The notes below the pieces were generated by a model. The model was not told the DNA's origin and ran no database searches. It saw only the letters and a list, made by a program, of their open reading frames with translations. 21,341 bases of DNA from a virus, in IMG/VR virus record IMGVR_UViG_3300045911_000275, positions 1 to 21,341 of that record; one strand, 5' to 3'. How positions within the stretch are numbered: the stretch's first letter is position 1; the number at the start of each line of letters is the position of its first letter. The position numbers and the translations under genes are program-made. Shown piece by piece: positions 1 through 14,179 of this stretch.

Positions 1-885
1 TAAGGAAAAATCTATCATTGCAGATTTATTATCATTTAGTTTGATCATCATTTCGCCTAAATTTGTTGGGCTTTTCTTTCCCCAACGTGCTCCAGGACAA
101 TCTAACTTCTGAAATAAATCTAATGAAATAGAAGATAATCCATTCCTATACACCTTTCGCTGATTGATTTCTTCCTGTTCCTCAAATGGCTTCGCCTTTA
201 AGGTTGCCTGCCATTTATCCTGTCTTTCTTTCCAGCGCCTAGTTCCTTCATCGTGCCCGTATTTCTTTACTAACTCACTTAACGAAAATGTTGCCTGCGC
301 TTCAGACAGCAGGCGCTTTGCTGTTTCTTCATCATAACCTCTAACCAAATAATAACCGAGTGTTCGAGTTGCATACTTGCTATTTCTAGTGTTACCATTT
401 CGGTTATTTTTATCCTTAGCGGCATTTGCCAATTTCTCGGCTTCTTCGATAGGATAACCTTTCTCCATCCAGTATTCTTTTCTAATTGGGCGAATACTAT
501 TTCTTTTGTACTCGGCTTCTTCTAAAGTGTAATACGCACCGGTGTCAGGATTTATCTTGCTCAACCAATGTTCTACTCCAAATGGAGATTTGATCTTGTC
601 AGTCTTTCTAACACCTGCAAGCTTACGCTCTCTTGCTTTCAATGTAGCTTCTTCTGGCCCCCAGCCGCGCTGTAACCAATACTTTTGATATGTCTGCGGG
701 ACAGCTGAGAGCCTACCAAGGTGATCACCCACGATCTTTGTAGCTATACCCTTGTTTAGCTGTTCGGTGTTTTCCAACTTAGACTTTAAAGCTTTGACGA
801 GATCCGGGTGCAAATCAACATATCGAGCTAGCGTCTGCTCAATTATCTGCTCCTTTGTGTGCTTCCATCTGCCTTGCAAGCTCAT
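1..885 (-). CDS. Free-standing Vsr-like (EDxHD-type) homing endonuclease, partial
   Basis: This frame is open from ATG 885 through the left edge (295 codons, no stop). It begins MSLQGRWKHTKEQ and overlaps the end of the gp46/intein fragment by 47 bases in a different frame. Seen: three copies of a motif of the form YWxxxGxxxEEA (QKYWLQRGWGPEEA, KEYWMEKGYPIEEA, GYYLVRGYDEETA), then FSLSELVKKYGHDEGTRRW and ERQDKWQ. Near the edge come ISLDLFQKL, LGEMMIKL and AMIDF. Known, from memory: phage homing endonucleases of the Vsr-like EDxHD family (I-Bth0305I type) carry such repeats and a KYG-EEG-KWQ segment before the nuclease fold. Inference: the Glu of LGE and the Asp of IDF are the first catalytic residues, with the His/Asp part and the stop outside the window. 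The SD is weak (TTAGAG before the ATG). An exact TATAAATA octamer lies 45 bases upstream. An in-frame join to the intein by a frameshift cannot be fully excluded. Confidence 0.75.
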   Translation of the reverse strand, partial: MSLQGRWKHTKEQIIEQTLARYVDLHPDLVKALKSKLENTEQLNKGIATKIVGDHLGRLSAVPQTYQKYWLQRGWGPEEATLKARERKLAGVRKTDKIKSPFGVEHWLSKINPDTGAYYTLEEAEYKRNSIRPIRKEYWMEKGYPIEEAEKLANAAKDKNNRNGNTRNSKYATRTLGYYLVRGYDEETAKRLLSEAQATFSLSELVKKYGHDEGTRRWKERQDKWQATLKAKPFEEQEEINQRKVYRNGLSSISLDLFQKLDCPGARWGKKSPTNLGEMMIKLNDNKSAMIDFSL

Positions 886-958
886 ATAATTCTCTAATTG
901 ATACCTGTCTTATAACACCTTTTACTCTAATATTTATACGAGTTTCAGGATAAAGGCA
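839..958 (-). other. Split intein N-fragment (IntN) inserted in the Walker A motif
   Basis: Thirty-nine codons starting at Cys51 of the gp46 fragment (TGC at 958-956). The sequence opens CLYPETRINI and continues through VSIRELYELA, then ends in a short charged tail before TGA. This fits intein block A: nucleophilic Cys1, a hydrophobic residue, a Thr at position 6, alternating hydrophobics, then a strand and short helix (I-x-x-L-Y-x-L). A full intein, or a usual split IntN of roughly 90-100 residues, would continue to block B; here it does not. Known, from memory: AceL-TerL-type inteins are naturally split after about 25 residues and start with a similar CVYGDT and EDLY pattern. Inference: an atypically split intein with a short IntN. 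Insertion at the Walker A Lys/Ser boundary is a common intein site. Confidence 0.78.
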
Positions 959-1108
959 CTTTCCAGCACCGTTTGACCCACCCTGGTCCAGGTTCTCGCC
1001 AGTGACGGTGACAGTGCCCTGGTCAGCAAGCTCGATCAGCTGGGGCGCGTTGCCAAATGACATTAGGTTTCTAATCTCAATGGATTTGAAAATAAGAGAA
1101 ATAGACAT
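839..1108 (-). CDS. 46: gp46-like recombination nuclease ATPase, N-terminal fragment fused to split-intein N-half
   Basis: An 89-residue product. Residues 1-50 match the start of an SbcC/Rad50-type ATPase (T4 gp46): IFKSIEIRNLMSFGN, a strand ending VTVTGENLDQGG, then the Walker A segment GSNGAGK (residues 44-50). The next residue should be Ser or Thr but is Cys51, followed by an intein-like sequence of 39 residues and a TGA stop. Start ATG 1108 is chosen because GGAAAGA lies just upstream and homology begins at MSISLIFKSIEI; the longer in-frame extension to 1234 is antisense to the endonuclease gene at 1121. gp46 normally pairs with gp47, encoded at 2388-3461, in end resection for recombination-dependent replication. 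Alone this fragment cannot work: it lacks the rest of the ATPase. Inference: the missing half, preceded by the intein C-half, lies beyond position 1 and protein trans-splicing rebuilds gp46. Confidence 0.87.
   Translation of the reverse strand: MSISLIFKSIEIRNLMSFGNAPQLIELADQGTVTVTGENLDQGGSNGAGKCLYPETRINIRVKGVIRQVSIRELYELARQMEAHKGADN
931..938 (-). promoter_or_regulatory. T4-type late promoter box TATAAATA inside the intein fragment
   Basis: On the minus strand positions 938-931 read TATAAATA, identical to the T4 late-promoter core recognised by gp55. It sits within the codons for Thr-Arg-Ile-Asn-Ile of the intein fragment, with 45 bases between the box and the endonuclease ATG at 885. It would drive the endonuclease separately from gp46. 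T4 group I intron endonuclease genes such as I-TevI are likewise expressed from internal late promoters. An eight-base match could arise by chance in coding DNA, but its strand and placement favour function. Confidence 0.6.
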
Positions 1109-1120
1109 TCTTATCTTTCC

Positions 1121-1870
1121 GTGAAAATACACAAAACTACAGAGTATAGTAACATATTCTTCACCTACATTGCCTTGAATCCCAGGAAGCCCGGTAACTT
1201 CCAATGCCCATTCTGCTCGTTGCTCTTCCAACACGCATATGTCGGAAAGGGTAACTTTGACAGAACTAATGGCATCAATGCAGTTATGAGTGATCCCTCA
1301 ATGAAGCCACATTCAGGAGAGCTTTTGCATTCTTGGTGCAAGAAGCTGCGTAAGGAAAAGATTCTGGAAGTGCCTATCGTCAGGTTAGAAGCACAGGATG
1401 AACTACATGCCTTCGCGACGGAGGAGATTTTGACGCGCCACTTTGGAATCCTGCCAGAAGGCGGTATTTTGTTCAACGGCCGGCATGGTGGAAAAGGGGG
1501 CTGGCAGGTAACAGAACGCACCAAGGAATTGCTATCACTGCTGAATCGCGGCGAAAACAATCCCAACTGGGGGACAACCTGGAGTGAAGAAAGGCGCGCA
1601 AAGTGGAAAACTACATGGCATAGCGAGAAGCGCACACGATCACGTGAAAGCATGGAGGCAGCATGGGCAGCGTATCGAAAGACGTATCTTGCCACGCCCA
1701 TAAATGGTGAACCAATCCTCGTGAATGATCTCACCAACTGGTGCGCTGAGCAGGGCCATCCGCTATCAGCGTTTCGAAGGGCGCTGAAGGGCGATGGTGT
1801 CGTGCGATCTGGCGCCCGCAAGAAGTCACGAATTGAAGACTGGCACATCAAGTACATGTCTCAAGCTTAG
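1121..1870 (+). CDS. GIY-YIG family homing endonuclease with NUMOD3 motif
   Basis: A 249-residue protein. The GIY-YIG core appears as FFTYIALNPRKPG (residues 13-25, Tyr16) and AYVGKG (39-44), with Arg48 and a likely catalytic Glu at 101 or 102 in FATEEILTRHFG. GILFNGRHGGKGGW (115-128) is the usual end of this phage nuclease subfamily. GENNPNWGTTWSEE (144-157) matches the NUMOD3 DNA-binding motif. The C-terminal third, with INGEPILVNDLTNWC and RIEDWHI, looks like a further DNA-binding module. The start is GTG 1121 with no clear Shine-Dalgarno sequence; it is the first usable start, and only 12 bases separate it from the divergent gp46 ATG. The gene runs against its neighbours gp47 and gp46, so it is an insertion in that gene pair. 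Family is fairly certain; cleavage site and activity are unknown. Confidence 0.86.
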   Translation: MKIHKTTEYSNIFFTYIALNPRKPGNFQCPFCSLLFQHAYVGKGNFDRTNGINAVMSDPSMKPHSGELLHSWCKKLRKEKILEVPIVRLEAQDELHAFATEEILTRHFGILPEGGILFNGRHGGKGGWQVTERTKELLSLLNRGENNPNWGTTWSEERRAKWKTTWHSEKRTRSRESMEAAWAAYRKTYLATPINGEPILVNDLTNWCAEQGHPLSAFRRALKGDGVVRSGARKKSRIEDWHIKYMSQA

Positions 1871-1892: not shown

Positions 1893-2012
1893 TTATGAAC
1901 AGTTGGCTGTTCGTATTTGTAAATGAAGAAACTCCAATTGATCACATTTCGACATTGCCGGCTCAATTGAATCCCAATTGTTACACCAAATCGAAGGAGC
2001 AAGACACATCAT
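1893..2012 (-). CDS. Possible 39-residue Cys-containing mini-ORF
   Basis: ATG 2012 to TAA 1893 gives 39 residues beginning MMCLAPSIWCNNWD, with four cysteines. Its ATG overlaps the TGA of the mini-ORF ending at 2009 (ATGA), the coupling style used elsewhere in this phage. It has no SD of its own beyond that coupling and no recognised family. It may be a real tiny gene, or a remnant of a gene that lay between gp47 and gp46 before the endonuclease arrived. Confidence 0.25.
   Translation of the reverse strand: MMCLAPSIWCNNWDSIEPAMSKCDQLEFLHLQIRTANCS
1897..1912 (+). terminator. Hairpin after the GIY-YIG endonuclease, weak terminator candidate
   Basis: GAACAG, loop TTGG, CTGTTC form a perfect 6-bp stem with a 4-base loop, 26 bases after the endonuclease stop. 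It is followed by GTATTTGT, only mildly T-rich. It lies between converging transcripts and could act on either strand; the poor T-tract keeps confidence low. Confidence 0.3.
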
Positions 2013-2053
2013 GTCAGTTTCCAATCTAGATCGACTTGAATAGGCATGCTCAT
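2009..2053 (-). CDS. Possible 14-residue mini-ORF with strong ribosome binding site
   Basis: ATG 2053 is preceded by AAGGAAGA at good spacing, a better site than several real genes here have, but the frame (MSMPIQVDLDWKLT) ends at TGA 2009. It could be a leader peptide, or the surviving start of a gene broken by insertion or frameshift. It overlaps the next mini-ORF by ATGA. Confidence 0.25.
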   Translation of the reverse strand: MSMPIQVDLDWKLT

Positions 2054-2087
2054 AGGTCTTCCTTTTTACGAATTTCGGCAGGGTCTT

Positions 2088-2231
2088 TTATCCTGCACCC
2101 TTGCACTTCGTTGCTGTCCAATCGTGAAATCTTTCTAAGAACTTCGGTCCTTCCCATAGAAATGCTAGAAGCGGATGAACAATAGCATTATGCACGAACT
2201 TCCAAAACCAAAATGACAGCTTACTTTTCAT
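2088..2231 (-). CDS. Small conserved-looking phage protein, 47 residues
   Basis: Begins MKSKLSFWFWKFVHN and ends HDWTATKCKGAG. The aromatic-rich segment FWKFVHNAIVHPLLAFLWE could be a short amphipathic or membrane-associated helix. The pattern F-hydrophobic-HN-x-hydrophobic-VHPLL followed by a Phe-His-Asp turn recalls small uncharacterised proteins seen in many phages; this is from memory and no function is known. ATG 2231 is chosen over the upstream GTG at 2387 because it is preceded by GAAAGA and because the region upstream is used by another gene in a different frame. It overlaps that gene's end by 11 bases. Confidence 0.65.
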   Translation of the reverse strand: MKSKLSFWFWKFVHNAIVHPLLAFLWEGPKFLERFHDWTATKCKGAG

Positions 2232-2391
2232 ATAGGTCTTTCGGTATATGAGGCACTGCCATTCCGGCAATCTGAACCCAGTCGGTGCCGTCAAACTGCA
2301 TTTCAGCCCAGAATCCAGGTTTTCCAAGTGACAGCCAAACCGTGTCGCCAATCTTTGGCTTCTTTGGCAGCTCATCAACGAACTCACTCAT
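2221..2391 (-). CDS. Small hypothetical protein downstream of gp47, 56 residues
   Basis: Starts at ATG 2391, which overlaps the gp47 stop as ATGA, and ends at TAA 2221. The product starts MSEFVDELPKKPKIGDTVWL and continues through WAEMQFDGTDWVQIAG, the look of a small beta-barrel or SH3-like fold (a K-hydrophobic-GD-x-V-W-hydrophobic opening is typical of such barrels). That is inference from pattern only. Tight coupling to gp47 suggests co-translation. No family is recognised. Confidence 0.7.
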   Translation of the reverse strand: MSEFVDELPKKPKIGDTVWLSLGKPGFWAEMQFDGTDWVQIAGMAVPHIPKDLYEK

Positions 2392-3461
2392 CCCAGCTCC
2401 TCGTATATCTTGACGAGGATAGATGGATCGATAGTCGCTGAAGGTTGTACTCCCTCGTTGATGAGCTTACGCACTGTATTGTCGAGCGACGATAGGTCAA
2501 TTTCACCGTCCATTTCTAGACCTTCTGCCAGCTGCTCTCTGCGAAGCATGATATCTTCTTCTACCGAGAACTCACGCAGACCCAGTGTTTCCACCATCTC
2601 TTCACGCAGCGCCTGCACCTCGGTGTACCCAATGTCCACATCAAGCATACACCGTACGCGGCTGCGGGCTGGGAAATTATAGTCACCTTCAAGTACTCGG
2701 CTAAGCTTAGTTTTGAAGAAAAGAGGAGCATCTGGCCAGTCATGGAAATACACATCATCATTATCAACATCAAAGACGCAGCAGCCCCGCTCTTTGTCAC
2801 CAGCATCACCAAAGTTAGTGGGAAAAGTATTACCGATGTAAATGATATTCTTGTTAGCTTGACGCTTGTGAAAGTGACCACTGAAAATGTACTTTGGTCC
2901 AGCAAAGTCCTCTGCATCTGGCCCATGCTCCATGCGCCGGTCTGCACCAGTTACCACAAAGTTTCGAAACTCAAAGTGACCCAGCACATACTTGTGCGAA
3001 GTAATGTCTGCCACCTGCGAAGCATATTCTTCTCTGAACAAATATGGTGCTACGTACCAATCCTTATTGAGGGACTGGGGTTCACTGATTAAGTAGAAGT
3101 TGTTGAGCTCATTCAATACAGAAGTTGAAAAGATGTATCGATTAGATCGATGGTATAGGTCGTGATTGCCAACAATAAAGATGACTGGTAATCCTAGAGA
3201 ATTGATGCGACGGCAACCTTCAATTGCGTGATTCAAGGTGCGCACATTGATGGCATTTCTATTTTCAAAGAAGTCGCCCAGAAAAGCGATGTGAGATGGT
3301 TTTTCATTCTTAATGATTTCTATTAGCCAGTCAATGTATTCTAGGTTGTCCAGATTATGCTGGTCTGAATTATTACGAGCCCCGAAATGGATGTCAGTCC
3401 ACATTACTACCTTACGGATATGACTAAACACCCCGGCTGCTTGACGGGAAGATGTAATCAT
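2388..3461 (-). CDS. 47: gp47-like recombination endonuclease subunit (SbcD/Mre11 family)
   Basis: A 357-residue calcineurin-like phosphoesterase. The metal-binding motifs appear in order: WTDIHFG (Asp23, His25), FLGDFFENR (Asp63), VGNHD (Asn99, His100, Asp101), LGHFE (His162) and SGHFH (His196, His198). This is the complete active-site set of Mre11/SbcD nucleases; T4 gp47 is of similar size. With gp46 it resects DNA ends in recombination-dependent replication. ATG 3461 is chosen over GTG 3470: GAGGGG lies eight bases before the ATG, while the GTG start would overlap the end of gp55. It follows gp55 with a 5-base gap and overlaps the next small gene by four bases. Its partner gp46 lies downstream but is split by an intein, with an antisense endonuclease gene between them. 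Confidence 0.95.
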   Translation of the reverse strand: MITSSRQAAGVFSHIRKVVMWTDIHFGARNNSDQHNLDNLEYIDWLIEIIKNEKPSHIAFLGDFFENRNAINVRTLNHAIEGCRRINSLGLPVIFIVGNHDLYHRSNRYIFSTSVLNELNNFYLISEPQSLNKDWYVAPYLFREEYASQVADITSHKYVLGHFEFRNFVVTGADRRMEHGPDAEDFAGPKYIFSGHFHKRQANKNIIYIGNTFPTNFGDAGDKERGCCVFDVDNDDVYFHDWPDAPLFFKTKLSRVLEGDYNFPARSRVRCMLDVDIGYTEVQALREEMVETLGLREFSVEEDIMLRREQLAEGLEMDGEIDLSSLDNTVRKLINEGVQPSATIDPSILVKIYEELG

Positions 3462-3466
3462 GGAGC

Positions 3467-3931
3467 TCACCCCTCTAAGTCAGATGAGTTCCGAAAGGCA
3501 GCTTCGTCTGAAGTGTGACTGGCGCTTTTTTCTTGATATGAGAATGATGGATTTGCGCCTGCGTCGATCAGAAGCTCATCACGTATCTCTCGCTGCTTCT
3601 TTTCATCAGAGAGGTACTGTAAAAAGCTGCGATAAACAGCAGTTGTGTAGAAAGCAAAAGGATTGTCTGACTTAGTTGGATCAAACTTGTGCCAATTAGC
3701 CACAAGATTAGTGACAGCAAAAGATACCATATCTTCGCGAAATGAATAGTTAGCGAAGCTATGACTATATGAATAACGCTCTGCAATCATCCAGAGCATC
3801 TTTGCAAGCTCACCGCTTAAGCGATTTGCTTTTTTATCACGCGCAATTGCCTCCAGCAGCTGCGCATTTGTGACATAATGTCCTTTAGTTGTAGTTGATT
3901 TTGGTTTTTTATAAACTGATTTCGTCGCCAT
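3467..3931 (-). CDS. 55: gp55-like late-transcription sigma factor
   Basis: A 154-residue protein; T4 gp55 is 185. Near the start it has YVTNAQLLEAIARDK, like the YVNNKELLQAI start of T4 gp55. The core has sigma region 2-like features: FREDMVSFAVTNLVANWHKFD, NPFAFYTTAVYRSFLQYL and a basic DEKKQREIRDE tail, with aromatic residues suited to melting a promoter. Known: gp55 redirects host RNA polymerase to TATAAATA late promoters, together with gp33 and the sliding clamp. The C-terminus ends RNSSDLEG and shows no obvious copy of the hydrophobic/acidic clamp-binding tail of T4 gp55. AGGAAGGG precedes ATG 3931. Matching late-promoter boxes in the window support the call. Confidence 0.86.
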   Translation of the reverse strand: MATKSVYKKPKSTTTKGHYVTNAQLLEAIARDKKANRLSGELAKMLWMIAERYSYSHSFANYSFREDMVSFAVTNLVANWHKFDPTKSDNPFAFYTTAVYRSFLQYLSDEKKQREIRDELLIDAGANPSFSYQEKSASHTSDEAAFRNSSDLEG

Positions 3932-4064
3932 GAATGCCCTTCCTACGGGTTATTAGAGGCGACGTTAAAGTGAATAATACTACATAGTCAGAAAAAAAAC
4001 TAGAAAAGCGTGATTGGGTGCAGTAGTCATCACCATAAATACTTCGCAGGTTATTGGAGTCATA
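3932..4064. promoter_or_regulatory. Divergent intergenic region between gp55 and the late baseplate genes
   Basis: This 133-base AT-rich gap must start transcription both ways. Rightward it contains the CATAAATACT box at 4034-4043. Leftward an eight-T tract and TAGTATTAT (minus strand, around 3975-3990) resemble a host sigma-type -10 region for gp55, but no convincing -35 or MotA box was identified, so the leftward promoter is only a guess. Confidence 0.4.
4034..4041 (+). promoter_or_regulatory. Late-promoter-like box CATAAATA upstream of the nucleotidyltransferase
   Basis: CATAAATACT matches the T4 late consensus TATAAATACT at all but the first position. Twenty-three bases separate the octamer from ATG 4065, the same spacing as the box before gp6, giving a very short leader that carries the GGAG ribosome site. 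Confidence 0.65.
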
Positions 4065-4763
4065 ATGCAAGAGATTTTTGAGTCCGAAGTCATTCCGGGC
4101 AGACAGAAAAGGAATGTCGTAGTGGCGGTTGGGCGCTTCAGCCCTCCCACGCGCGGACACTATAAGCTGATCAATGCTATGAAGGCATTTATCCGTGATA
4201 ATCCAGATCTCAAGTTAGATGCCCAACCTGTAGTAGTTATTATTTCAGGAAGCAAAACTGACGGTGACAAAGAGCGTAATCCACTTTCCGGTGAAGAGCG
4301 TAAGCTTTTTATGGAAAATTCTGGACGAGCTAATGGTGTCAAGTTCCTTACTGCCCCCTCCGCGTTTGACGCCTTTGCCGCTGTCAGAAAAGCCAGTATG
4401 GAACCGCTTGCCATCGCAGCAGGGGCCGACCGCAAGAAAGTGTATGAAAAACTGCTCCATCAATACTTTACACAAGATGGGACTCCAGTGAAGCATGGAG
4501 GTATCGCCATTAATAGGCACTTTGTCCCTGGGCTTGATCGGGATACTGATACTGAGCACGATGATGGAGAAGATTACTATCAAAAAGTCATTGATATGAT
4601 TAATGATGGCGAGGCAGTGAGTGATGAAATGATAAGCGGTTCTCTTGCCCGCTTCGCCGCTCGCAAAGGAGAAGATAAGGCATTCGCGTATATTGTTGGC
4701 ATGGAGAATAAGCCAATTCTCGCAAAGAAGATGCAGCAGAAGATTGTAGGGAGCAGTAAATGA
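4065..4763 (+). CDS. HxGH-superfamily nucleotidyltransferase (NMNAT/cytidylyltransferase-like)
   Basis: A 232-residue protein. VVVAVGRFSPPTRGHYKLI (residues 18-36) holds the nucleotide-binding [HT]xGH signature as Thr29-Arg-Gly-His32, after a first beta strand. VVIISGSKTDGDKERNPL is the usual second strand and loop, and MISGSLARFAARKGEDKAF near the C-terminus resembles the IS-x-S/T-x-x-R signature that binds the triphosphate. Such enzymes join a nucleotide to a phosphorylated partner, as in NAD synthesis; the substrate here cannot be told. ATG 4065 is chosen because GGAG lies seven bases upstream and the nearby late promoter leaves no room for the longer GTG start at 4014. It overlaps the tube-cap gene by four bases (ATGA). 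Why such an enzyme leads a baseplate operon is unclear. Confidence 0.85.
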   Translation: MQEIFESEVIPGRQKRNVVVAVGRFSPPTRGHYKLINAMKAFIRDNPDLKLDAQPVVVIISGSKTDGDKERNPLSGEERKLFMENSGRANGVKFLTAPSAFDAFAAVRKASMEPLAIAAGADRKKVYEKLLHQYFTQDGTPVKHGGIAINRHFVPGLDRDTDTEHDDGEDYYQKVIDMINDGEAVSDEMISGSLARFAARKGEDKAFAYIVGMENKPILAKKMQQKIVGSSK

Positions 4764-6085
4764 GTCTACTGCCCGGTAACGCGCCGCGCTCATTAGGAAA
4801 TACTCTGAGTTCCTTGAAGACGAGCATACAAGAAACTGCTAATAAGGCTGCATCTACCTTTAAGAATAATTTTCCATTCACTAAGGTATCGTCAACAGCA
4901 GAGCCAATAAATGAGCTAGCGCGCCGTCAAGCAATTGCAGGTGCAGAGCAGATAGCTAGTACATTCGCTGGAAATGCTTTAGTAGATAGCGCTACACGTG
5001 ACTTACTCAATGAGCCAACTACTGCCATAGTTACTGCTCAGCAACTAAATTCTATTATTCGACAAAACGGCACTGATACCTCGCATCGCGTAAAATTGGT
5101 AGAGATTGGCGGCAATCCTGATGGCAAAGACCTCGTTGTAGAATTTAGGGTGATGCCTGAAATCTTTGAAAGTCGTACAGTAGAATATCAAGCAGTGGCG
5201 CCACCTCAGCATCCAGGCGCTTTCCAAAAATACACTGGCACTTCAAGTACGCAGTGGACTGTGAATGCAACCCTTACCTGTAGAACAACTGTAGAAGCAA
5301 CTGAAAATCTTGCTATTCTAAATCTACTGCGCGGGTGGACGATGCCATTCTTCGGTTCGCGTACGCGAGATACCTATGGACAGAAACTTGGAGCACCACC
5401 ACCAGTACTAGAATTCAGTGGATTTAGAAGTCAAATGATTGGTCCAGTGCCAGTAGTAATGACTAGCGCAACTTGGACTTTTCCACAAGATGTTGACTAC
5501 ATTCCCGCAGCATCAAATGATGGGACGCAGTTGATACCATTCCCAACTGTACTGCGCATTACCATCAACTTGGTTGAAACATTCTCTTCAGAGCAGTTCA
5601 ATGGCTTTGACCTTTATGAATTTAGACAAGGCAACTTCAGAAAGGCGTATGCTCCCCACAAGACTATGGGAATACAAGACAGAATGCGTCTTCAAGTGAA
5701 CGCGCCACAAGAAGCGCAGGTGGTGGATGGTAACTACAGTAATGAGGGTAAAAATTATCCTCCTTCTACCAACAACCCCAACTACAGCAATGAGGGCAGA
5801 AATTATCCGCCTTTTACAAACAATCCTAACTACAGTAATGAGGGACGTAATTGGCGACGCGTAGTCTCTGAGAGAAAAGAGGCTGTACCAAGCATTCCAT
5901 CAGGCACTGGCGATTTCCCAGATTTCACTATACCACCGTACGGGAGAGTGGGTAGCCCACCAGCAACTGCAAAAACCGCTAGAAGAAGATTTATATCTGG
6001 TGGTGGCGGCAACTTTGGTGGTGGCGGTGCCAGCGGCGTGGCAGGTCCAGATGATACGAGCATCTTCAGAACAGGTGAATTCTAA
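4760..6085 (+). CDS. Baseplate tail-tube cap/initiator protein (gp48/gp54-like)
   Basis: A 441-residue protein. The central domain (about residues 100-305) has LVVEFRVMPEIFESRTVEY, a HPGAFQKYTGTSSTQW segment, a helix RTTVEATENLAILNLLRGW, LGAPPPVLEFSGF, and PFPTVLRITINLVETFS followed by FNGFDLYEFRQG. This pattern is typical of the tube-like domain of phage baseplate proteins that start or cap the tail tube (T4 gp48 and gp54 share this fold). Which of the two it equals cannot be decided. The N-terminal ~100 residues are helical and polar. The C-terminal ~130 residues are low-complexity: three tandem copies of a 16-residue unit (from residue 325), then a Pro-rich stretch and a Gly-rich run. Overlaps: four bases with the preceding gene and one base (TAATG) with the next, so translation is probably coupled. 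Confidence 0.72.
   Translation: MSLLPGNAPRSLGNTLSSLKTSIQETANKAASTFKNNFPFTKVSSTAEPINELARRQAIAGAEQIASTFAGNALVDSATRDLLNEPTTAIVTAQQLNSIIRQNGTDTSHRVKLVEIGGNPDGKDLVVEFRVMPEIFESRTVEYQAVAPPQHPGAFQKYTGTSSTQWTVNATLTCRTTVEATENLAILNLLRGWTMPFFGSRTRDTYGQKLGAPPPVLEFSGFRSQMIGPVPVVMTSATWTFPQDVDYIPAASNDGTQLIPFPTVLRITINLVETFSSEQFNGFDLYEFRQGNFRKAYAPHKTMGIQDRMRLQVNAPQEAQVVDGNYSNEGKNYPPSTNNPNYSNEGRNYPPFTNNPNYSNEGRNWRRVVSERKEAVPSIPSGTGDFPDFTIPPYGRVGSPPATAKTARRRFISGGGGNFGGGGASGVAGPDDTSIFRTGEF
5732..5854 (+). repeat. 48-base in-frame tandem repeat encoding NYSNEGRNYPPFTNNP
   Basis: Two full units (5732-5779, 5780-5827) and a partial third (5828-5854). The protein unit NYSNEG[KR]NYPP[SF]TNNP is nearly perfect. The units differ mainly at synonymous positions, which suggests an old duplication kept by selection. 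They lie in a flexible C-terminal tail of the tube-cap protein. Confidence 0.95.
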
Positions 6086-6456
6086 TGACGCAGCGTAATA
6101 GCACTCTTCTTCGATATTCACGCTATGTAAGCGGTGGAGAAACCGAGGTAAATTCACGTGCTCTTGAATGGTGGGAAAGAGACGTATTCTTACGCTCTGA
6201 TGATGATTTTACCTACGTTGTAGAGAAGCGCTTTGAGAACCGGTTAGATTTGATAGCAGCAACCTTCCTAGGTGAATCGCGATATTGGTGGGTAATCGCG
6301 ATGCTCAACAATATTTTGGACCCATCAACTGAAGTAACAACAGGAGTAGTGCTGTACATCCCAACGCAAGAGCGAGCAAAACAACTATTGTCTGGTAAGT
6401 TAGGTGGAGTTACCTCTACTCGCACACTATCGTCAACTATCAAGGCCGTAGTATGA
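6085..6456 (+). CDS. 53: gp53-like baseplate wedge protein (LysM-like)
   Basis: A 123-residue protein. Residues about 48-100 (EKRFENRLDLIAATFLGESRYWWVIAMLNNILDP, then a strand LYIPTQ) show the LysM-like pattern of T4 gp53: a helix after a basic residue, IA/ATxxG, a YWWV helix with MxN, and a DP turn. T4 gp53 is longer (196 residues) and links baseplate wedges to the hub. The short N-terminal part (SRYVSGGETEVNSRALEWWERD) is not recognised. It overlaps both neighbours (one base upstream, four bases ATGA downstream). A general LysM wedge protein from another contractile system is the alternative reading. Confidence 0.8.
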   Translation: MTQRNSTLLRYSRYVSGGETEVNSRALEWWERDVFLRSDDDFTYVVEKRFENRLDLIAATFLGESRYWWVIAMLNNILDPSTEVTTGVVLYIPTQERAKQLLSGKLGGVTSTRTLSSTIKAVV

Positions 6457-8570
6457 CAATCTATGGGCGTCTGTTTAATCCACTAGATGAATACGCGTCC
6501 TATTCCACGCACTTCGTCATGCTCGCCTGTCGCTCAAGCGAGCAAGCCCGCATTTTCTCACAAGACAGCAATCGTCGGTCAAGTCTACAGGCAATAAATG
6601 ATGTCAAGTCACTAGGTGATCCAGTTATCTTTGGGAGCACATCTTCAGACATCTTCTTGGTGATGGATACCCGCCGCTTTAGTCAATTTACCATCCAAAA
6701 ATTAGAATTTAATACTTTAGTGCACGGTGTTGGTGCCGGATATTCCGTAAACAACACCATCCAACAGATTTCGATGACAGTGTTGGACAGCGTAGGCATC
6801 TCATTCTTTAACTACATCCAGTGGTTGTTGGATTCACAGATGCAAACAAATTTCGATGGAATGATTTTCTTACTCCGCGTGATATTCGTTGGGCATCGGG
6901 GCGACCCTAAGGACCCGCTGTACAGCAGTGCTGATAATGTTGAAGTACAGACCATCACCATACCAATGACGCTTTTTAAGATGGAACTAAACTTGGACTA
7001 TGCCAAGGGCATCTATGAATGCGAGTTCCTGCCAGTGATGAATTTTTCACCAGTAGAGGGCGCAAGATGGCTCAACATCGGGAATGCTTCTGCCTTCTTT
7101 AGCGGCACTAATAACTCTAAGTTGGGCGCAATGGTGCGTGCCTTTGAGAATGAACTAAATCGCCAATCAATTAAGTTCTACAATGAACTACAACCATTGA
7201 TTCTGCAGGCTGGTAGAAATGTACAACCCGCAACTGGCAAGTTTGGGCGACAGGTTCAGTACATGATTACCTTGCCTAAGGAATGGGAAGATTGGGACTA
7301 TGCAGGCCCCGCGATGCATGGCGCCCTTGAGAAGAAGTTTGGCCCTTCTCAACAGCAGGAAGATACTACCTCTAACCCAGCACAGGGAAGTTATATGTCT
7401 GTGCGTGGTGGGCAAACTATTACACAAGTACTAGACCTACTATTAGATGGTGTGCCACGCATCAAAGAATTAGCCAATGACGACCGCGTCAAAAATGGGC
7501 AGGAGATCGTATTCTATCACTACTTGGTGAGCACTACAAGTAATGATGATAGTATCACTGTGCATGTAGATATAATCCCATTTCAAATGCCTAGACCAGA
7601 CCTTCCATCAAAGAAGGGCGCTGTCAATGATTCAGCATCAGAAACGCAAAGTAAGTGGCTTACTAAAAAGACAGATGATATGGGTATAACACGCCTAGTT
7701 CCAAAGAACGGATGCGAGTTTGACTATATCTTCACTGGCAAGAATTTAGATGTGCTGAATTTTGACATGAAGATTCAGAATTTGCAGTTCCTATTGACGG
7801 CAAATACCCGAGTGTCTGAAGGAGAAATGTTCCTATTAAGCAGTAATCTGCAGGTGTCTGGAACTGGCTCACAACCAAAACAAGAACCCCCAAAGCCAGC
7901 GCTGATGTCGCTGCGCGCATATGACCCAGTTTTACTGCCTCTGCGGACGCCTGCGGAAATGAAAGCATTTTCTAACTATCTAACTTGGCGTAGTGATGCG
8001 AAGACTAAGAAGATTCAAGCGGATGCGCAGAACTATTCACGTAATCTATCAGCATTTTACAACCAATCTCCTATCCAAGTTAATATGGTAATCAAGGGCA
8101 ACCCATGGCTCTTAGACAAATTTAATATCGGCACTCCACCACGTCACGTAAGTCCAACTACAAATCAGGGTGCAGGAACAACTCCTGCTGGCAGTTCAGA
8201 AGAAGTTCGCAGCAGTTATAGGGAGCATCTTGAGAATGACGTATTGAAGGCGCGCAGCGGTGCTACTAGAGATAGTAATGGCGTCTTTAGAGCAAATGAT
8301 TCGTTAGGTGAAGATAGCTTCATTGAAACACCTTTCTTCGTGACAGTAAACATTATGGGGCCAAATTTTGACGCACTGTCGGGGGAAAAAATGCAAGGAG
8401 AGTTTGCGACACGCATTCTAAATGATAACTGGTACACGGTGTTCCAAATAAAGCACACTATTGACAATGGTGTCTTTACACAGGAACTAACTCTAAATTC
8501 ATACAGCATATATGGGGGCGGCTCACTTACCACTGAGCAGCCAACTGAAAGACAAAAGCAGAGGGCTTAA
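6453..8570 (+). CDS. Putative baseplate hub protein (gp27-like by position)
   Basis: A 705-residue protein ending one base into the spike gene (TAATG). The N-terminal half is rich in beta strands: IYGRLFNPLDEYASYSTHF, FTIQKLEFNTLVHG, NTIQQISMTVLDSVGISFF and TITIPMTLFKMELNL suit a hub made of tube-like barrels. The ITQVLDLLLDGVPRIKEL segment and the block LDVLNFDMKIQNLQFLLTAN recall gp27-like hub proteins, which hold the gp5 spike. T4 gp27 is only 391 residues, so this would be an enlarged hub. The end (FVTVNIMGPN, NDNWYTVFQIKHTIDNGVF) looks like a final barrel strand set. The assignment rests chiefly on being directly before the spike gene and on this pattern, not on a clear motif. Confidence 0.6.
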   Translation: MTIYGRLFNPLDEYASYSTHFVMLACRSSEQARIFSQDSNRRSSLQAINDVKSLGDPVIFGSTSSDIFLVMDTRRFSQFTIQKLEFNTLVHGVGAGYSVNNTIQQISMTVLDSVGISFFNYIQWLLDSQMQTNFDGMIFLLRVIFVGHRGDPKDPLYSSADNVEVQTITIPMTLFKMELNLDYAKGIYECEFLPVMNFSPVEGARWLNIGNASAFFSGTNNSKLGAMVRAFENELNRQSIKFYNELQPLILQAGRNVQPATGKFGRQVQYMITLPKEWEDWDYAGPAMHGALEKKFGPSQQQEDTTSNPAQGSYMSVRGGQTITQVLDLLLDGVPRIKELANDDRVKNGQEIVFYHYLVSTTSNDDSITVHVDIIPFQMPRPDLPSKKGAVNDSASETQSKWLTKKTDDMGITRLVPKNGCEFDYIFTGKNLDVLNFDMKIQNLQFLLTANTRVSEGEMFLLSSNLQVSGTGSQPKQEPPKPALMSLRAYDPVLLPLRTPAEMKAFSNYLTWRSDAKTKKIQADAQNYSRNLSAFYNQSPIQVNMVIKGNPWLLDKFNIGTPPRHVSPTTNQGAGTTPAGSSEEVRSSYREHLENDVLKARSGATRDSNGVFRANDSLGEDSFIETPFFVTVNIMGPNFDALSGEKMQGEFATRILNDNWYTVFQIKHTIDNGVFTQELTLNSYSIYGGGSLTTEQPTERQKQRA

Positions 8571-9652
8571 TGCTAATTGAGGGTGTAGTTGTTGATACAA
8601 ATGATCCCCAGCAAATGGGGAGAGTAAGAGTGTGGTGCCCTGCCGTGGATGGTGATGACCCACTCATTGATCGCCTCCCCTGGGCTACATACGTCAGCCC
8701 GTTGGCCGGCAGCGCGCTTGATGGTAGAAGTGGCCCAAATAGCGCTTTATCATCAGGAGGGGTGGCGTATGGGTTTTGGGCAGTTCCAAAGAAGGGCGCT
8801 ACAGTCATCATTGGCTTTCTTTATGATGACTATAATCAACGCTTTTACCTAGGCTCTTACTTTCCAGAGCATTCTAATCGCTCGCTACCTGCTGGTAGAA
8901 ATTCTACTAATGGTCCTACAACTGACACAGATCAGCAACTGCAGCCAGCAACGAAAAACCTTCAAGACCAGTTCCAAGGAAATCTCACAGCATCAGAGGC
9001 GCAGACGCGGGGTGTAAGTGAAAGGCAAGTTGCTCAAGCATCGACTATCAAGGATGGAGCTGAAGGTTATCAGCCATCAGCAGCAGATGCCAAAACTCTT
9101 GACCCACAGACCTATTGCTGGGTAACTCCAGGGCACCATGCTATCATTATGCAGGATTCACCTACATCAGGGCGTGTTAGGGTGAAGACAGCAGAAGGGC
9201 ATCAAGTAATTTTAGATGATGCCAATGAACGCATCTACATTAGTACCGCTAAAGGTAATAACTGGATAGAGATGGACCAAGATGGGCGCATCTACATCTA
9301 TAGTGGTGGTACGGTAAGCATTGCGGCAGCCCGCGACTTAAATTTAACAGCCGGTGGCGACATCAACATTGCTGCTGGCGGTAGCTTCAATGTAAGTGCC
9401 TCAAAAGATGGATTGATTGCTGCTTGCGGCATACTGGGGCTAAGCACAGATGGTGATGCCTTTCTAACATCTGGTGGACAACTTAACTTAAAGGCGGCTT
9501 CTAATATTCTACAGACTGGAAACAATATCCATCTTAATGGCCCAATGGCCGCAGAGGCGCCCTGTCCTGTCAAGACAGATGAGATTCCTCAGAAGGAACC
9601 ATGGAAGCGTCCTGCAACAGCAGGTACACGCAATCCTCATTGGAAGGAATGA
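8570..9652 (+). CDS. 5: gp5-like central spike protein without lysozyme domain
   Basis: A 360-residue protein. Residues 1-105 are an OB-fold: IEGVVVDTNDPQQMGRVRVW, LPWATYVSPLAG, VPKKGATVIIGF and RFYLGSYFP are classic for gp5 and VgrG spikes. Residues 115-180 are a polar linker. From about 185 come strands GRVRVKTAEGHQVILDD and NWIEMDQDGRIYIYSGG, then a repeat-rich beta-helix (ARDLNLTAGGDINIAAGG, GQLNLKAASN) that forms the needle. T4 gp5 has a lysozyme domain between the OB-fold and the helix; here only the linker is present. The C-terminal tail ends GTRNPHWKE. It punctures the outer membrane or cell surface at the tip of the tail. Confidence 0.9.
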   Translation: MLIEGVVVDTNDPQQMGRVRVWCPAVDGDDPLIDRLPWATYVSPLAGSALDGRSGPNSALSSGGVAYGFWAVPKKGATVIIGFLYDDYNQRFYLGSYFPEHSNRSLPAGRNSTNGPTTDTDQQLQPATKNLQDQFQGNLTASEAQTRGVSERQVAQASTIKDGAEGYQPSAADAKTLDPQTYCWVTPGHHAIIMQDSPTSGRVRVKTAEGHQVILDDANERIYISTAKGNNWIEMDQDGRIYIYSGGTVSIAAARDLNLTAGGDINIAAGGSFNVSASKDGLIAACGILGLSTDGDAFLTSGGQLNLKAASNILQTGNNIHLNGPMAAEAPCPVKTDEIPQKEPWKRPATAGTRNPHWKE

Positions 9653-9653
9653 T

Positions 9654-10022
9654 ATGAAGCTAAATGAAATCAATGATATGCGGGCTGAATTGATAGTTTC
9701 TTCTGTCAATAAGTTGATTAATGCAGGCATTAAGGTACAACTTATTACCCGCAGCGATGACAATTCAATTATACGCGGTGTTGTGAAGGAAATAAAGGCT
9801 GGCTTGCCGCATTCGCAGTATGAACTAAGATACACCATGGATGGTGTTTACACCACTACAGGCGATAGCATATTCAAAAACACAGATGATAGTGAAGTTG
9901 ATTCATTCATATTTTCTGAGAACGAAATGAATAACACTGAGTTGACTAAATTAAAGAAGGACGTTTATCTGCTGAGTATTCCGAATGAGAGATTAACACG
10001 TAAAAGCACCTTACACCGGTAA
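9654..10022 (+). CDS. Hypothetical protein between spike and gp25, 122 residues
   Basis: ATG 9654, preceded by GGAAGGA, begins MKLNEINDMRAELIVSSV just after the spike stop. The body alternates helix and strand: INAGIKVQLITRS, then GVVKEIKAGLPHSQYELRY and a polar acidic stretch, ending NERLTRKSTLHR. No signal peptide or transmembrane segment is visible. The middle could be a small barrel-like fold. No family is recognised. T4-type phages often carry small baseplate assembly genes at this place; that is only positional. Confidence 0.75.
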   Translation: MKLNEINDMRAELIVSSVNKLINAGIKVQLITRSDDNSIIRGVVKEIKAGLPHSQYELRYTMDGVYTTTGDSIFKNTDDSEVDSFIFSENEMNNTELTKLKKDVYLLSIPNERLTRKSTLHR

Positions 10023-10024
10023 GA
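10010..10024 (+). other. Short hairpin spanning the end of the 122-residue gene
   Basis: CTTAC, loop ACCGG with part pairing, GTAAG gives a 5-bp stem with a small loop over the stop codon. It is not followed by a T-run, so it is not a convincing terminator. Confidence 0.3.
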
Positions 10025-10036
10025 GTTATGCAGACA

Positions 10037-10086
10037 CAGTAATTAACAAAGACGTAAGTGGCTTTAGACTTAGTGAGTAATTACTG
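10037..10086 (+). other. Nine-base inverted repeat in the gap before gp25
   Basis: CAGTAATTA (10037-10045) and TAATTACTG (10078-10086) are perfect inverse copies with a 32-base spacer. It lies in the 80-base untranslated gap before gp25, whose ribosome site GAAAGAG follows the right arm. No T-run follows. It may be an RNA stem that shields or spaces translation, or a protein site; function is unknown. Confidence 0.4.
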
Positions 10087-10102
10087 AGATTGAAAGAGTA
10101 TC

Positions 10103-10468
10103 ATGGCAACAACATACAGAGGCTTCTCTACGTTTGGCGCTACCAAAAATTTCCAACTATCTGATCAAGAGTTGGTGAAGCGCGACCTCATGAATCACAT
10201 CTACACGCTGAGAGGTGAACGCGTGATGCTGCCTAACTTTGGTACTATGATTCCACTTTTAGCATTTGAGCCTCTTGACCCAGAAACTCTCACTATTGTC
10301 GAGCGAGACCTACGAGAGGTTTTTGACTATGATCCTCGCGTTGAGTTAATTGATTTAGCAGTCATGGCTCTACCTGACAATAATGCCATTGTGGCACTCG
10401 CAGACATTCGCTATGTGGAATTAGGGGTAGTAGAAACCCTAAGACTAGAGTTTCCAACAGGTTCATAA
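10103..10468 (+). CDS. 25: gp25-like baseplate wedge protein
   Basis: A 121-residue protein; T4 gp25 is 132. The diagnostic LRGERVMLPNFGTMIPLLAF (residues about 37-56) contains the LPNFGT turn of the gp25 / type VI TssE family, followed by LTIVERDLREVFDYDPRVELIDL. Known: gp25 helps hold the (gp6)2-gp7 wedge core to the sheath and triggers sheath assembly. RBS GAAAGAG lies four bases before ATG 10103. It is separated from the preceding gene by 80 bases and from gp6 by 52 bases with a late-promoter-like box, so it can be read with the upstream operon. Confidence 0.95.
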   Translation: MATTYRGFSTFGATKNFQLSDQELVKRDLMNHIYTLRGERVMLPNFGTMIPLLAFEPLDPETLTIVERDLREVFDYDPRVELIDLAVMALPDNNAIVALADIRYVELGVVETLRLEFPTGS

Positions 10469-10489
10469 TGTTGCTACAGTCCAACACAG

Positions 10490-10497
10490 CGTAAATA
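10490..10497 (+). promoter_or_regulatory. Late-promoter-like box CGTAAATA upstream of gp6
   Basis: CGTAAATA has the TAAATA core of T4 late promoters but differs at the first two positions. Twenty-three bases separate the octamer from ATG 10521, identical to the spacing before the nucleotidyltransferase gene. Confidence 0.5.
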
Positions 10498-10520
10498 GTT
10501 GATGACACTGAGAATTATCT

Positions 10521-13500
10521 ATGGCACTTCGTACAACATACTCCGCAGAAACTTGGGAAGCAGCCTATCAGGCGTTTAGCGCAGTCAACTTTACTGCGTA
10601 TGACTTTGATACTGTAAAACAGTCTCTGATTGACTATACCAGAATCTACTACGCGGAACAGTTCAACGATTTCATTCAGAGTTCTGAATTCATTGCGCTG
10701 CTTGAGATTTTTGCCTACATCTGTGAGCAGATGGCATATCGCGTTGACATGGTAGCGCATGAAAATTTCATCACTACAGCGCAGCGCAAACAGTCAGTTC
10801 TGCGCCTGGCAAAGTTGATTTCCTATAAGGCAACGCGCAATATCCCACTGCGCGGTCTTGTTAAGGTGTCATCCATTTCTACAACAGAGCAAGTAGTTGA
10901 TAGTCGTGGTATTAATCTGTCTGGTTTGACTATCAACTGGAATGATCCTAACAATCCTAATTGGAAAGAACAGTTCTTTCTGGTAATGAACCGCGTGTTG
11001 AACTCGCGTTTTGGTAATCCACAGAAGACATATCAAATTGGTGACGTGGTGATGGATTTGTACTCACTGCGCAACAACACTGCAGCATTACCACTTGGCG
11101 TCTTTGCATTTAGCGCATCTACCGGCGTTGATACATTCAACATGGAGATTGTGCCTGCAGACATTGATGAAAATGGGCCATTCGAGCGTGAACCCGATCC
11201 TACTTCACCAATGACGGTCATCTACGCAAATGACGGTATTGGCGATGGTTCTGACTATACAGGTTTCCTACTGCACGTTAAGCAGGGTGTGCTGAGTCAA
11301 ATTGAACTGGATATTGTTGACCTACTACCAAATCGTCGTCTAGACTTTGACGCCACAAATGTGAATGATACTGACGTCTGGGTTCAAAGAATAGACGATG
11401 ATGGAAATATCATTGAACGCTGGACACAAGTGGAAACGATTGCTGAACAAAACTTGATGTTCAATTCTAATCGAGACACCCGCCGGAAATACGAAGTTGA
11501 CACTCTTGAAAATGATCGTATTCGCATAATGTTCGGTGATGGCGACTTTGTGGATATTCCACGTGGCACCTTTCGCTTCTGGTTGCGTCAGTCACTCGGG
11601 CGTAGTGTGGTGGTGCAAAAGAACCGCATTACTAATGAACCATTTCCATTTACCTACACTGGTGTAACTGGCAACACTGAGACTTGCACCCTGCGCTTTG
11701 GCCTAGTATCAGCGCTGCAGAATGCATCTGCTACTGAAAGCATCGAGAGCATTAGAAGAAGCGCACCAGCAACATATTACTCTCAGAATCGCATGGTGAA
11801 TGGGCAGGACTACAACACCTTCATGTTGAAGGACCCATCTATCCTGCGTCTAAAAGCAATTAACCGCACTTTTGCAGGGCAGCCAAAATATATTGACTGG
11901 AATGATGCGTCAGGTCAGTATGAGAATATCAAGTTGTTCGGTGATGACCTGTCAATGAAGTACATACTTGGTGTGGAAACACTGACGACTTCTGTTTCAG
12001 GGCAAGTACTTATTGACCGCGTTATTGAACCGCTGCTATCTACGCCAGGCATCATTAACATGCTGCTGCACATCTCAGCAAATGACCCTGCTACAGTAGG
12101 CGTTGTTAGTTCCCCCCGCCGACAGTTAATTGAAGATAACCGCGGTGGTATCCATATTGCGGCAGATGGCTCATTTGTTGATGTGCTAACTGGAGCTCCC
12201 GCTGGTGATGGTTCTTTGAAAGAAAAGACAGCACTTCAGGCATACATTGACCAGCACTACTATGGGGAGCCCTTAGAATTCGTGACTGATAGTAACAATA
12301 ATTTTCTAGCGCGTATTCCTGACCCAGATCTTTTCCCTAAAGATGATAGTCGTATCTATGCGGCAAACGTGCCACGTACAATTGATGGGGTGAATCGGTT
12401 CCCACCTGGCGATACTGGCTCAGGCCTGCAGCCAATCGCTGAGCAAGAGTACTTTGGATTGCGCTTTAACCGGTATATGCAAGGCATTGGTGATGGCAGC
12501 ATTTCTACGTCTACCGCCAATAACCCAGGCTCAGATTGGTTGACAGGTGGATACTTCCTGCCAGATGGCGAGGTGTTCACAGTAGAAATGAAGGCTGATG
12601 GGGTTACATTTGATGTTCGTAGCAACAAGCGCGGTTCATTCCCAGCGGGTGAAGTTGGAGTTCCCTACCTTATTCAACCAAGTGGGTTTTCAACACCTGC
12701 AGAACTGTTAACTGTTACGCAGGGGCTAGTATCATTTGAGCAGGGTGATGCCTTTGTACTTGATGTTGCTCCTTCAGGGATTATTAATCAGAGAGCCTTT
12801 CCCCCACTGCCTATTGGACGAGCAATCAATCTAAATGGTTGGTGGGAAGTCATGAAGGCAGCAGATATGCCTGACTACGGGTCATCTATCCCTAATGCTG
12901 CTTACTGGACGACGTCTGACCAGATTGCACCTGATAATTTAAAGCAGCATAGTTGGCTTATCTTTGTACGTAAAGTACGTAACCCGGTAACTAGTGAAGT
13001 TATTAGTTATGAGGTACATCATCGCACTCTATCGCTTGTTGTGACAAGCCCAACTACTAAATTCTGGTATAATGCCGTTGACCAGTTAATTGATAGTGAA
13101 ACGCAGAAGCGCGTGTTCGACAATATCAAGGTGCTGCGCTCTAATAAAGATGCACTTGGTAATGTTATTAGCGCCAGTCAAATCTACGATGTAGTTGGTG
13201 CTGTAAAGGACAATAATGGCGTTATTGACGTTCACTCACTCTCAGTCATGCCTTCAGACCTGCTGAATGAGGATGATAGCGGTAACTTGATACCTGATAG
13301 ACTATTGCAGTTCGAGATGTTCGCTGGTTCAGGCACTGGCAGCGCTTCGTATGAGTATTTTCTAATTGGCCCACCTGAAGTTACACTCCCATCTGATCCT
13401 CTTGGTCCTTCTGCTTGGGCGCCTGCTTCGATGGCTGCGTATGATCCAATTTCTACTAACTGGTATGGCAGACGTTTGCGTATGACAGGACAGCCAGGTG

Positions 13501-14120: not shown

Positions 14121-14146
14121 TGCCCTGGGAAGACTTGTGCTATCCC

Positions 14147-14154
14147 AGTAAATA
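14147..14154 (+). promoter_or_regulatory. Late-promoter-like box AGTAAATA upstream of gp7
   Basis: AGTAAATA keeps the TAAATA core and is 25 bases before ATG 14180. Its last bases are also the left arm of a 9-bp hairpin, so promoter and hairpin overlap. Confidence 0.5.
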
Positions 14155-14172
14155 AGCAACTACTGCTTATTT
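14150..14172 (+). terminator. Perfect 9-bp hairpin between gp6 and gp7, possible weak terminator or leader stem
   Basis: AAATAAGCA (14150-14158), loop ACTAC, TGCTTATTT (14164-14172) pair fully. It lies 29 bases after the gp6 stop and ends eight bases before the gp7 ATG. The stem is AT-rich and the right arm ends TTATTT. It could end gp6 transcripts, and in longer read-through transcripts it would sit over the place where a ribosome site for gp7 should be (none is obvious). Confidence 0.4.
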
Positions 14173-14179
14173 GAAATTT

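What the first reader, a model, noticed from the sequence alone, without database searches (positions are those of the whole stretch)
1..1108. Fractured gp46 gene with an atypically short split intein at the Walker A motif
Seen: the gp46-like frame runs to GSNGAGK, then Cys-Leu-Tyr-Pro-Glu-Thr begins an intein-like sequence that stops after 39 residues, and a separate endonuclease gene follows. Known: 'fractured genes' in phages combine a split intein with a free-standing Vsr-like endonuclease between the two gene halves, and a few inteins (AceL-TerL type) have very short N-fragments. Inference: this is such an arrangement in a recombination nuclease gene, with an IntN of about 39 residues, rarer than the usual ~90-100-residue form.
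Basis: partly seen in the sequence, partly recalled or inferred. Interest (0 to 1): 0.88.

Follow-up and report, generated by a model that had tools for sequence, protein, structure and literature searches.

The report
Split gp46 gene with short intein
A phage DNA-recombination gene is broken in two by a mobile element, and the two protein halves are predicted to be joined by a naturally split intein with an unusually short first piece; this is a new example of a known, and more common than expected, kind of protein-splicing parasite.

Summary
On the minus strand, gp46 (SbcC/Rad50-like) reads to the Walker A lysine (GGSNGAGK), then enters a 39-residue intein N-fragment at Cys51 (1108..842). 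A nuclease gene starts inside that fragment in another frame (885) and runs off the window at position 1. The window is a whole IMG/VR record, so nothing lies to its left. A sister contig (L003) continues: a 376-residue nuclease, then IntC (122 aa, ...SHN) joined to Thr+1 and the rest of gp46. The nuclease C-terminus models as a Vsr/I-Bth0305I-like domain. The cassette is 94-96% identical between the two phages while gp47 and the gp46 N-extein are saturated at silent sites, and 16 related contigs have an empty site: recent homing.

The short IntN is not rare within its family. Among about 60 IMG/VR loci the median IntN is 37 aa, nearly always after a P-loop GK (gp46, terL, helicase- and clamp-loader-like genes). 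The nearest solved relatives are VidaL and Cat; AceL- and GOS-TerL have 25- and 37-aa IntNs. So: a new gp46 member of the fractured-gene/atypical split-intein kind. Trans-splicing is inferred, not shown. Bonus: in some terL relatives the nuclease lies out of frame inside one uninterrupted intein ORF.

The parts
959..1108 (-). gp46 (SbcC/Rad50-like) N-extein, 50 aa, ending in Walker A GGSNGAGK
   Evidence: ORF; PHROG 77 E 2.7e-5; 16 related contigs read through this site uninterrupted
842..958 (-). intein N-fragment (IntN), 39 aa, Cys1...Asn39; stop codon 839-841
   Evidence: 92% aa and 95.7% nt identity to L003 IntN; leave-out profile beats 998 shuffles
1..885 (-). Vsr-like homing endonuclease gene, first 295 codons of about 376, cut by the window edge; overlaps IntN by 47 nt in another frame
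   Evidence: 94.9% identical to the L003 nuclease over 295 aa; nuclease-domain model Z 10.4 to I-Bth0305I, 10.2 to Vsr (modelled on L003, because most of that domain lies beyond the window edge)
958..959 (-). intein insertion point, between the Walker A Lys codon and the Cys1 codon
   Evidence: nt identity to L003 rises from about 60% to 94-96% towards and past this point; empty sites in relatives
2388..3470 (-). gp47 (SbcD/Mre11-like), upstream neighbour and partner of gp46
   Evidence: PHROG 100 E 3.5e-58; Pfam Metallophos

Best explanation
A selfish cassette (split intein plus Vsr-like homing endonuclease) sits in the Walker A codons of a jumbo-phage gp46 gene. gp46 is made as two proteins, N-extein+IntN (50+39 aa) and IntC+C-extein (122+529 aa in the sister). 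The IntN hairpin and helix dock onto IntC to complete a Hint fold. Cys1, the block B and block F histidines, the terminal His-Asn and Thr+1 then carry out class 1 trans-splicing, which rebuilds GGSNGAGK-TTIINA and an active gp46 ATPase. The endonuclease cuts intein-free gp46 alleles at or near this site, and recombination copies the whole cassette in. The three ORFs overlap end to end, which probably couples their translation. Shown: anatomy, cassette mobility, empty sites, purifying selection in relatives, Hint and Vsr-like folds by model. Inferred: splicing, cleavage site, coupling, jumbo-phage origin.
For: The complete arrangement is in L003. Homing signature: window vs L003, gp47 pS 0.75 and N-extein pS 0.72 (saturated), against IntN dS 0.08 and nuclease dS 0.22, dN/dS 0.10. 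16 relatives have an uninterrupted site. In 9 other fractured gp46 loci dN/dS is 0.25 (IntN), 0.14 (IntC) and 0.20 (nuclease). IntC profile: VidaL 5e-10, Cat 1e-9, gp41-1 3e-9 in PDB. A contiguous natural homologue (L051) models at pLDDT 88.6 with its one disordered loop (40-56) where relatives are split, and is nearest VidaL, TM 0.86. Nuclease domain: I-Bth0305I Z 10.4, Vsr Z 10.2, with near-invariant D292, E301, W307, H308. HEN-deleted copies stay split (L062, L097).
Against: The window ends before IntC, so its own C-half is unseen. The window IntN is only a weak match to intein profiles on its own. dN/dS over the 24 IntN codons that do not overlap the nuclease is 0.94 in the window/L003 pair, but only about four changes are involved, too few to judge. 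No splicing, expression or cleavage data exist. The full-length nuclease Foldseek search gave no match with E below 0.001.
Confidence: 0.9

Rival explanations
1. The arrangement is decay: a once contiguous intein with an internal nuclease has been broken by frameshift, so gp46 is a pseudogene or works as two unjoined pieces.
For: The nuclease lies in a different frame from the intein; some relatives are clearly degenerate (L050: IntN cut to 16 aa and nuclease in pieces).
Against: Same frames, stops and overlaps in L003 and similar ones in many gp46 loci; purifying selection on IntN, IntC and nuclease; catalytic residues intact; the Walker A Lys and Thr would lie on different chains without joining.
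Confidence: 0.05
2. Assembly or sequencing error makes an apparent split in a contiguous intein.
For: Single metagenome contig; the window ends inside the cassette.
Against: An independent contig with the same ORF ends; about 30 stops in the intein frame across the nuclease, as expected by chance.
Confidence: 0.02
3. A programmed ribosomal frameshift or stop bypass joins the pieces at translation instead of protein trans-splicing.
For: IntN and IntC share a frame in 35 of 60 split loci, and the nuclease ORF overlaps both ends.
Against: About 30 stops in the intein frame rule out simple readthrough; a double frameshift through the nuclease would put about 370 aa inside the intein; HEN-less L097 has IntN and IntC in different frames with only a short overlap.
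Confidence: 0.03

Closest known systems
Fractured genes (Dassa et al. 2009, doi 10.1093/nar/gkp095; paper not held, content from memory)
   Same: Phage-type gene broken in two by a split intein, with a separate Vsr-like homing endonuclease gene between the halves.
   Different: Host gene is gp46; split between blocks A and B (IntN 39 aa) rather than at the usual endonuclease site (IntN about 90-100 aa); endonuclease ORF overlaps both intein halves.
Atypically split TerL inteins AceL-TerL, GOS-TerL and the consensus Cat (PMC11766414)
   Same: Short IntN (25, 37, 30 aa) and long IntC (104-115 aa); related IntC sequence (CatC E 1e-9).
   Different: Those sit in terL with Cys+1 (as tabulated in PMC11766414); this one is in the gp46 P-loop with Thr+1.
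VidaL ultra-short split intein (PDB 6vgv)
   Same: Best structural match of the family's contiguous homologue (TM 0.86, rmsd 2.1) and best PDB sequence match of IntC.
   Different: About 20% identity; VidaL's IntN is shorter (from memory).
I-Bth0305I and Vsr endonucleases (3r3p, 1cw0)
   Same: C-terminal nuclease domain fold (Z 10.4 and 10.2), D...E-Y-G-D-Y-W-H pattern.
   Different: Long helical N-terminal part with YW-L-x-RG-x-EEA repeats and a WKERQDKW block; encoded between intein halves.

Membership tests
Class 1 intein | Cys/Ser at intein position 1, right after the N-extein | tested here: met
   GAGK|C in window, GSGK|C in L003
Class 1 intein | Block B histidine | tested here: met
   CADNH in L003 IntC; this His invariant in A1 and A5
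Class 1 intein | Terminal His-Asn followed by Cys/Ser/Thr+1 | tested here: met
   SHN|TT in L003; not visible in the window itself
Class 1 intein | Hint fold | tested here: inconclusive
   Contiguous homologue L051 is clearly Hint; the split protein itself was not modelled as a complex
Class 1 intein | Protein splicing activity | not testable with these tools
   needs expression
Fractured gene (Dassa type) | Host gene in two ORFs, each carrying one intein half | tested here: met
   L003 797-1066 and 2126-4081; the window shows the N half only
Fractured gene (Dassa type) | Separate homing endonuclease gene between the halves | tested here: met
   L003 1020-2150, overlapping both halves
Fractured gene (Dassa type) | Endonuclease is Vsr-like | tested here: met
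   Z 10.2-10.4 to Vsr and I-Bth0305I; weak profile hits to the same entries
Atypically split (short-IntN) inteins | IntN of about 16-40 aa, split before block B | tested here: met
   39 aa; block B lies in IntC
Atypically split (short-IntN) inteins | Homology to characterised members | tested here: met
   VidaL and CatC are the best PDB hits of the IntC profile
Homing mobile element | Empty sites in relatives and cassette less diverged than its host gene | tested here: met
Homing mobile element | Endonuclease cuts the empty allele | not testable with these tools
   needs an assay

The most novel reading that the evidence does not exclude
Short-IntN splitting in this family may be a by-product of one conserved cassette design: the endonuclease gene is out of frame, starting in the tail of IntN and ending 25 nt into IntC. 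Lineages then differ only in whether the intein frame across the nuclease is closed (split, as here) or kept open (a contiguous intein with the nuclease nested in a second frame, as in several terL genes). If so, these are interchangeable states of one element, and overlapping frames rather than gene breakage explain the origin of naturally split inteins of this type.
Probability: 0.45. Interest if true: 0.72.

Novelty: new member of a known kind. Interest (0 to 1): 0.52.

Why it matters
It adds gp46, the phage Rad50 homologue, to the genes fractured by short-IntN inteins; no report of this turned up in the papers that could be searched. gp46 and gp47 may themselves help process breaks during phage homing (PMC2988022), so the element would depend on a protein that works only after the element splices itself out. 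The wider survey shows natural IntNs near 37 aa are common in uncultivated phages and nearly always interrupt P-loops, a large pool of possible labelling tools. Intermediates (HEN-less split, HEN-deleted, contiguous, out-of-frame nested) make the origin of split inteins testable.

Tried and rejected
The window's own left flank: not held. Indel or assembly artefact: rejected. A dual-coding open frame in the window or L003: rejected, stops at expectation. Pfam on the N-half gave nothing and NCBIfam/TIGR01445 was below cutoff. Scan with the 89-aa N-half found only L002; profile scan with the nuclease (A2) added no contigs beyond. Tblastn of cultured phages found no record where one place covers 80% of a fractured-gp46 IntC plus C-extein query; best hits were terL, contiguous in the two Ackermannviridae records opened (one by annotation only). 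Caulobacter phage Cr30, a nuclease hit next to terL, has an intact terL (SRQSAK|STT uninterrupted) with the nuclease free-standing upstream. Dassa 2009 is not held; searches for inteins with gp46, or with an alternative reading frame, found no report.

Full report
Observation. The window is a complete 21,341-base IMG/VR record, so its left edge is a contig end. On the minus strand gp47 (2388-3470; PHROG 100, E 3.5e-58) is followed by the gp46 start at 1108. gp46 reads 50 codons to the Walker A lysine (GGSNGAGK) and continues in frame into CLYPETRINIRVKGVIRQVSIRELYELARQMEAHKGADN and a stop at 839-841. A second frame opens at ATG 885, inside the last part of this ORF, and stays open to position 1 (295 codons).

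The missing half. A scan with this second ORF found contig IMGVR_UViG_3300045911_000368 (L003), 94.9% identical over all 295 residues. There gp47 overlaps the start of gp46; gp46-N plus IntN is 797-1066; the nuclease is 1020-2150; and an ORF at 2126-4081 begins with 122 residues ending DHRYFSNGFLSHN, then TTIINAICYALYNKPF and the rest of gp46. IntC matches Pfam Intein_splicing (E 1.1e-5, below cutoff), and the C-extein matches SMC_N and SbcC models.

Mobility. Between window and L003, gp47 (pS 0.75) and the N-extein (pS 0.72) are saturated at silent sites. IntN is 95.7% identical at the DNA level (dS 0.08) and the nuclease 94.4% (dS 0.22, dN/dS 0.10). Identity climbs from about 60% to 94-96% over the last part of the N-extein, as expected of co-conversion. 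Sixteen related contigs (a few near-identical to each other) carry the uninterrupted site, mostly GGSNGAGK|TTIINA. The cassette therefore moved recently between diverged phages; gp47's nearest isolate records are jumbo phages such as XacN1.

Fold and chemistry. An IntC profile finds VidaL (5e-10), CatC (1e-9) and gp41-1 (3e-9) in the PDB. A natural contiguous homologue in terL (L051) models at pLDDT 88.6 with one disordered loop (40-56), where the split relatives are broken; its best structural match is VidaL (TM 0.86). Cys1, the block B His (CADNH), block F (DHRYFSNGFLSHN), terminal His-Asn and Thr+1 are all present, as for a class 1 intein. The L003 nuclease models at pLDDT 82, and residues about 250-376 align to I-Bth0305I (Z 10.4) and Vsr (Z 10.2), above most other rows. 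A profile search gives the same entries weakly. Near-invariant D292, K298, E301, G304, W307, H308 and E356 fit the Vsr pattern (correspondence to Vsr residues is from memory).

Family. Of the 80 loaded plus the earlier ones, 60 distinct split cases have a median IntN of 37 aa; 63 of 66 entries sit right after GK; +1 is Thr 46, Ser 17, Cys 3; and in 30 the nuclease stop overlaps the IntC start by exactly 25 nt (automatic table, a few rows mispaired, for example L015 and the second rows of L066, L070 and L107). About 20 of these are gp46; others are terL and genes that look like a replicative helicase, ClpX-like AAA proteins and a clamp loader (gene names outside gp46 and terL by eye). Purifying selection acts on IntN, IntC and nuclease in nine gp46 loci (dN/dS 0.25, 0.14, 0.20). 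Two gp46 loci have lost or lack the nuclease but are split: L062 keeps a 36-codon remnant bridging IntN and IntC, and L097 has directly overlapping IntN and IntC ORFs.

A related oddity. In terL inteins L064, L085, L092, L130-L135 and L137 the nuclease lies in a second frame inside one uninterrupted intein ORF: 0 stops where 15-19 are expected, and the minima over 2,000 to 20,000 synonymous shuffles were 5-10. The nuclease stop sits 25 nt past an ATG at the IntC start in L064, as in split members, and the frame offset is the same. The window and L003 do not share the open frame. This suggests that split and nested forms are states of one cassette; the order is not established.

Verdict. Observation confirmed, interpretation supported with its rarity claim corrected. 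It is a new gp46 member of a known kind (fractured gene with an atypically split intein). Splicing, cleavage and translational coupling remain inferences.

Noticed in passing
L064:3343-6162, L085:3277-5487, L092:3316-6279, L137:2104-4977, L130:2131-5094: terL inteins in which the 280-305-codon endonuclease gene lies out of frame inside one uninterrupted intein ORF (0 stops vs 15-19 expected; shuffle minima 5-10): apparent dual coding. L132/L134 carry a 97% identical nuclease in a different terL from L130.
   Followed up: partly
window 1121-1870 (+): Free-standing NUMOD3-bearing homing endonuclease gene (Pfam E 8e-6), opposite in orientation, between gp47 and gp46; absent from L003, where gp47 and gp46 overlap. 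L023 has a 49% identical gene at the same place. GIY-YIG-like by eye, untested.
   Followed up: partly
L004:3798-5182 and L007:9992-11376: A relative of the same endonuclease sits between gp47 and an intact, intein-free gp46, in two overlapping ORFs: the nuclease without the intein.
   Followed up: no
L062:4177-6489 and L097:3648-5823: gp46 still split by the intein although the nuclease is deleted to 36 codons (L062) or absent (L097); overlaps between neighbouring ORFs are kept.
   Followed up: partly
L070, L085, L107, L112: terL genes with two or three inteins of this family, at the Walker A GK|T site and again before Cys (SHN|CEFLGSTNTLI and similar).
   Followed up: no
L094:3261-6486: terL case where the nuclease matches inside the same 1,019-aa ORF as IntC while IntN is a separate ORF: nuclease fused in frame to the C-half.
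   Followed up: no
window 3467-3931 (-) and 4014-4763 (+): By eye, a T4 gp55-like late sigma factor and a NadM-like nucleotidyltransferase next to gp47; not searched.
   Followed up: no
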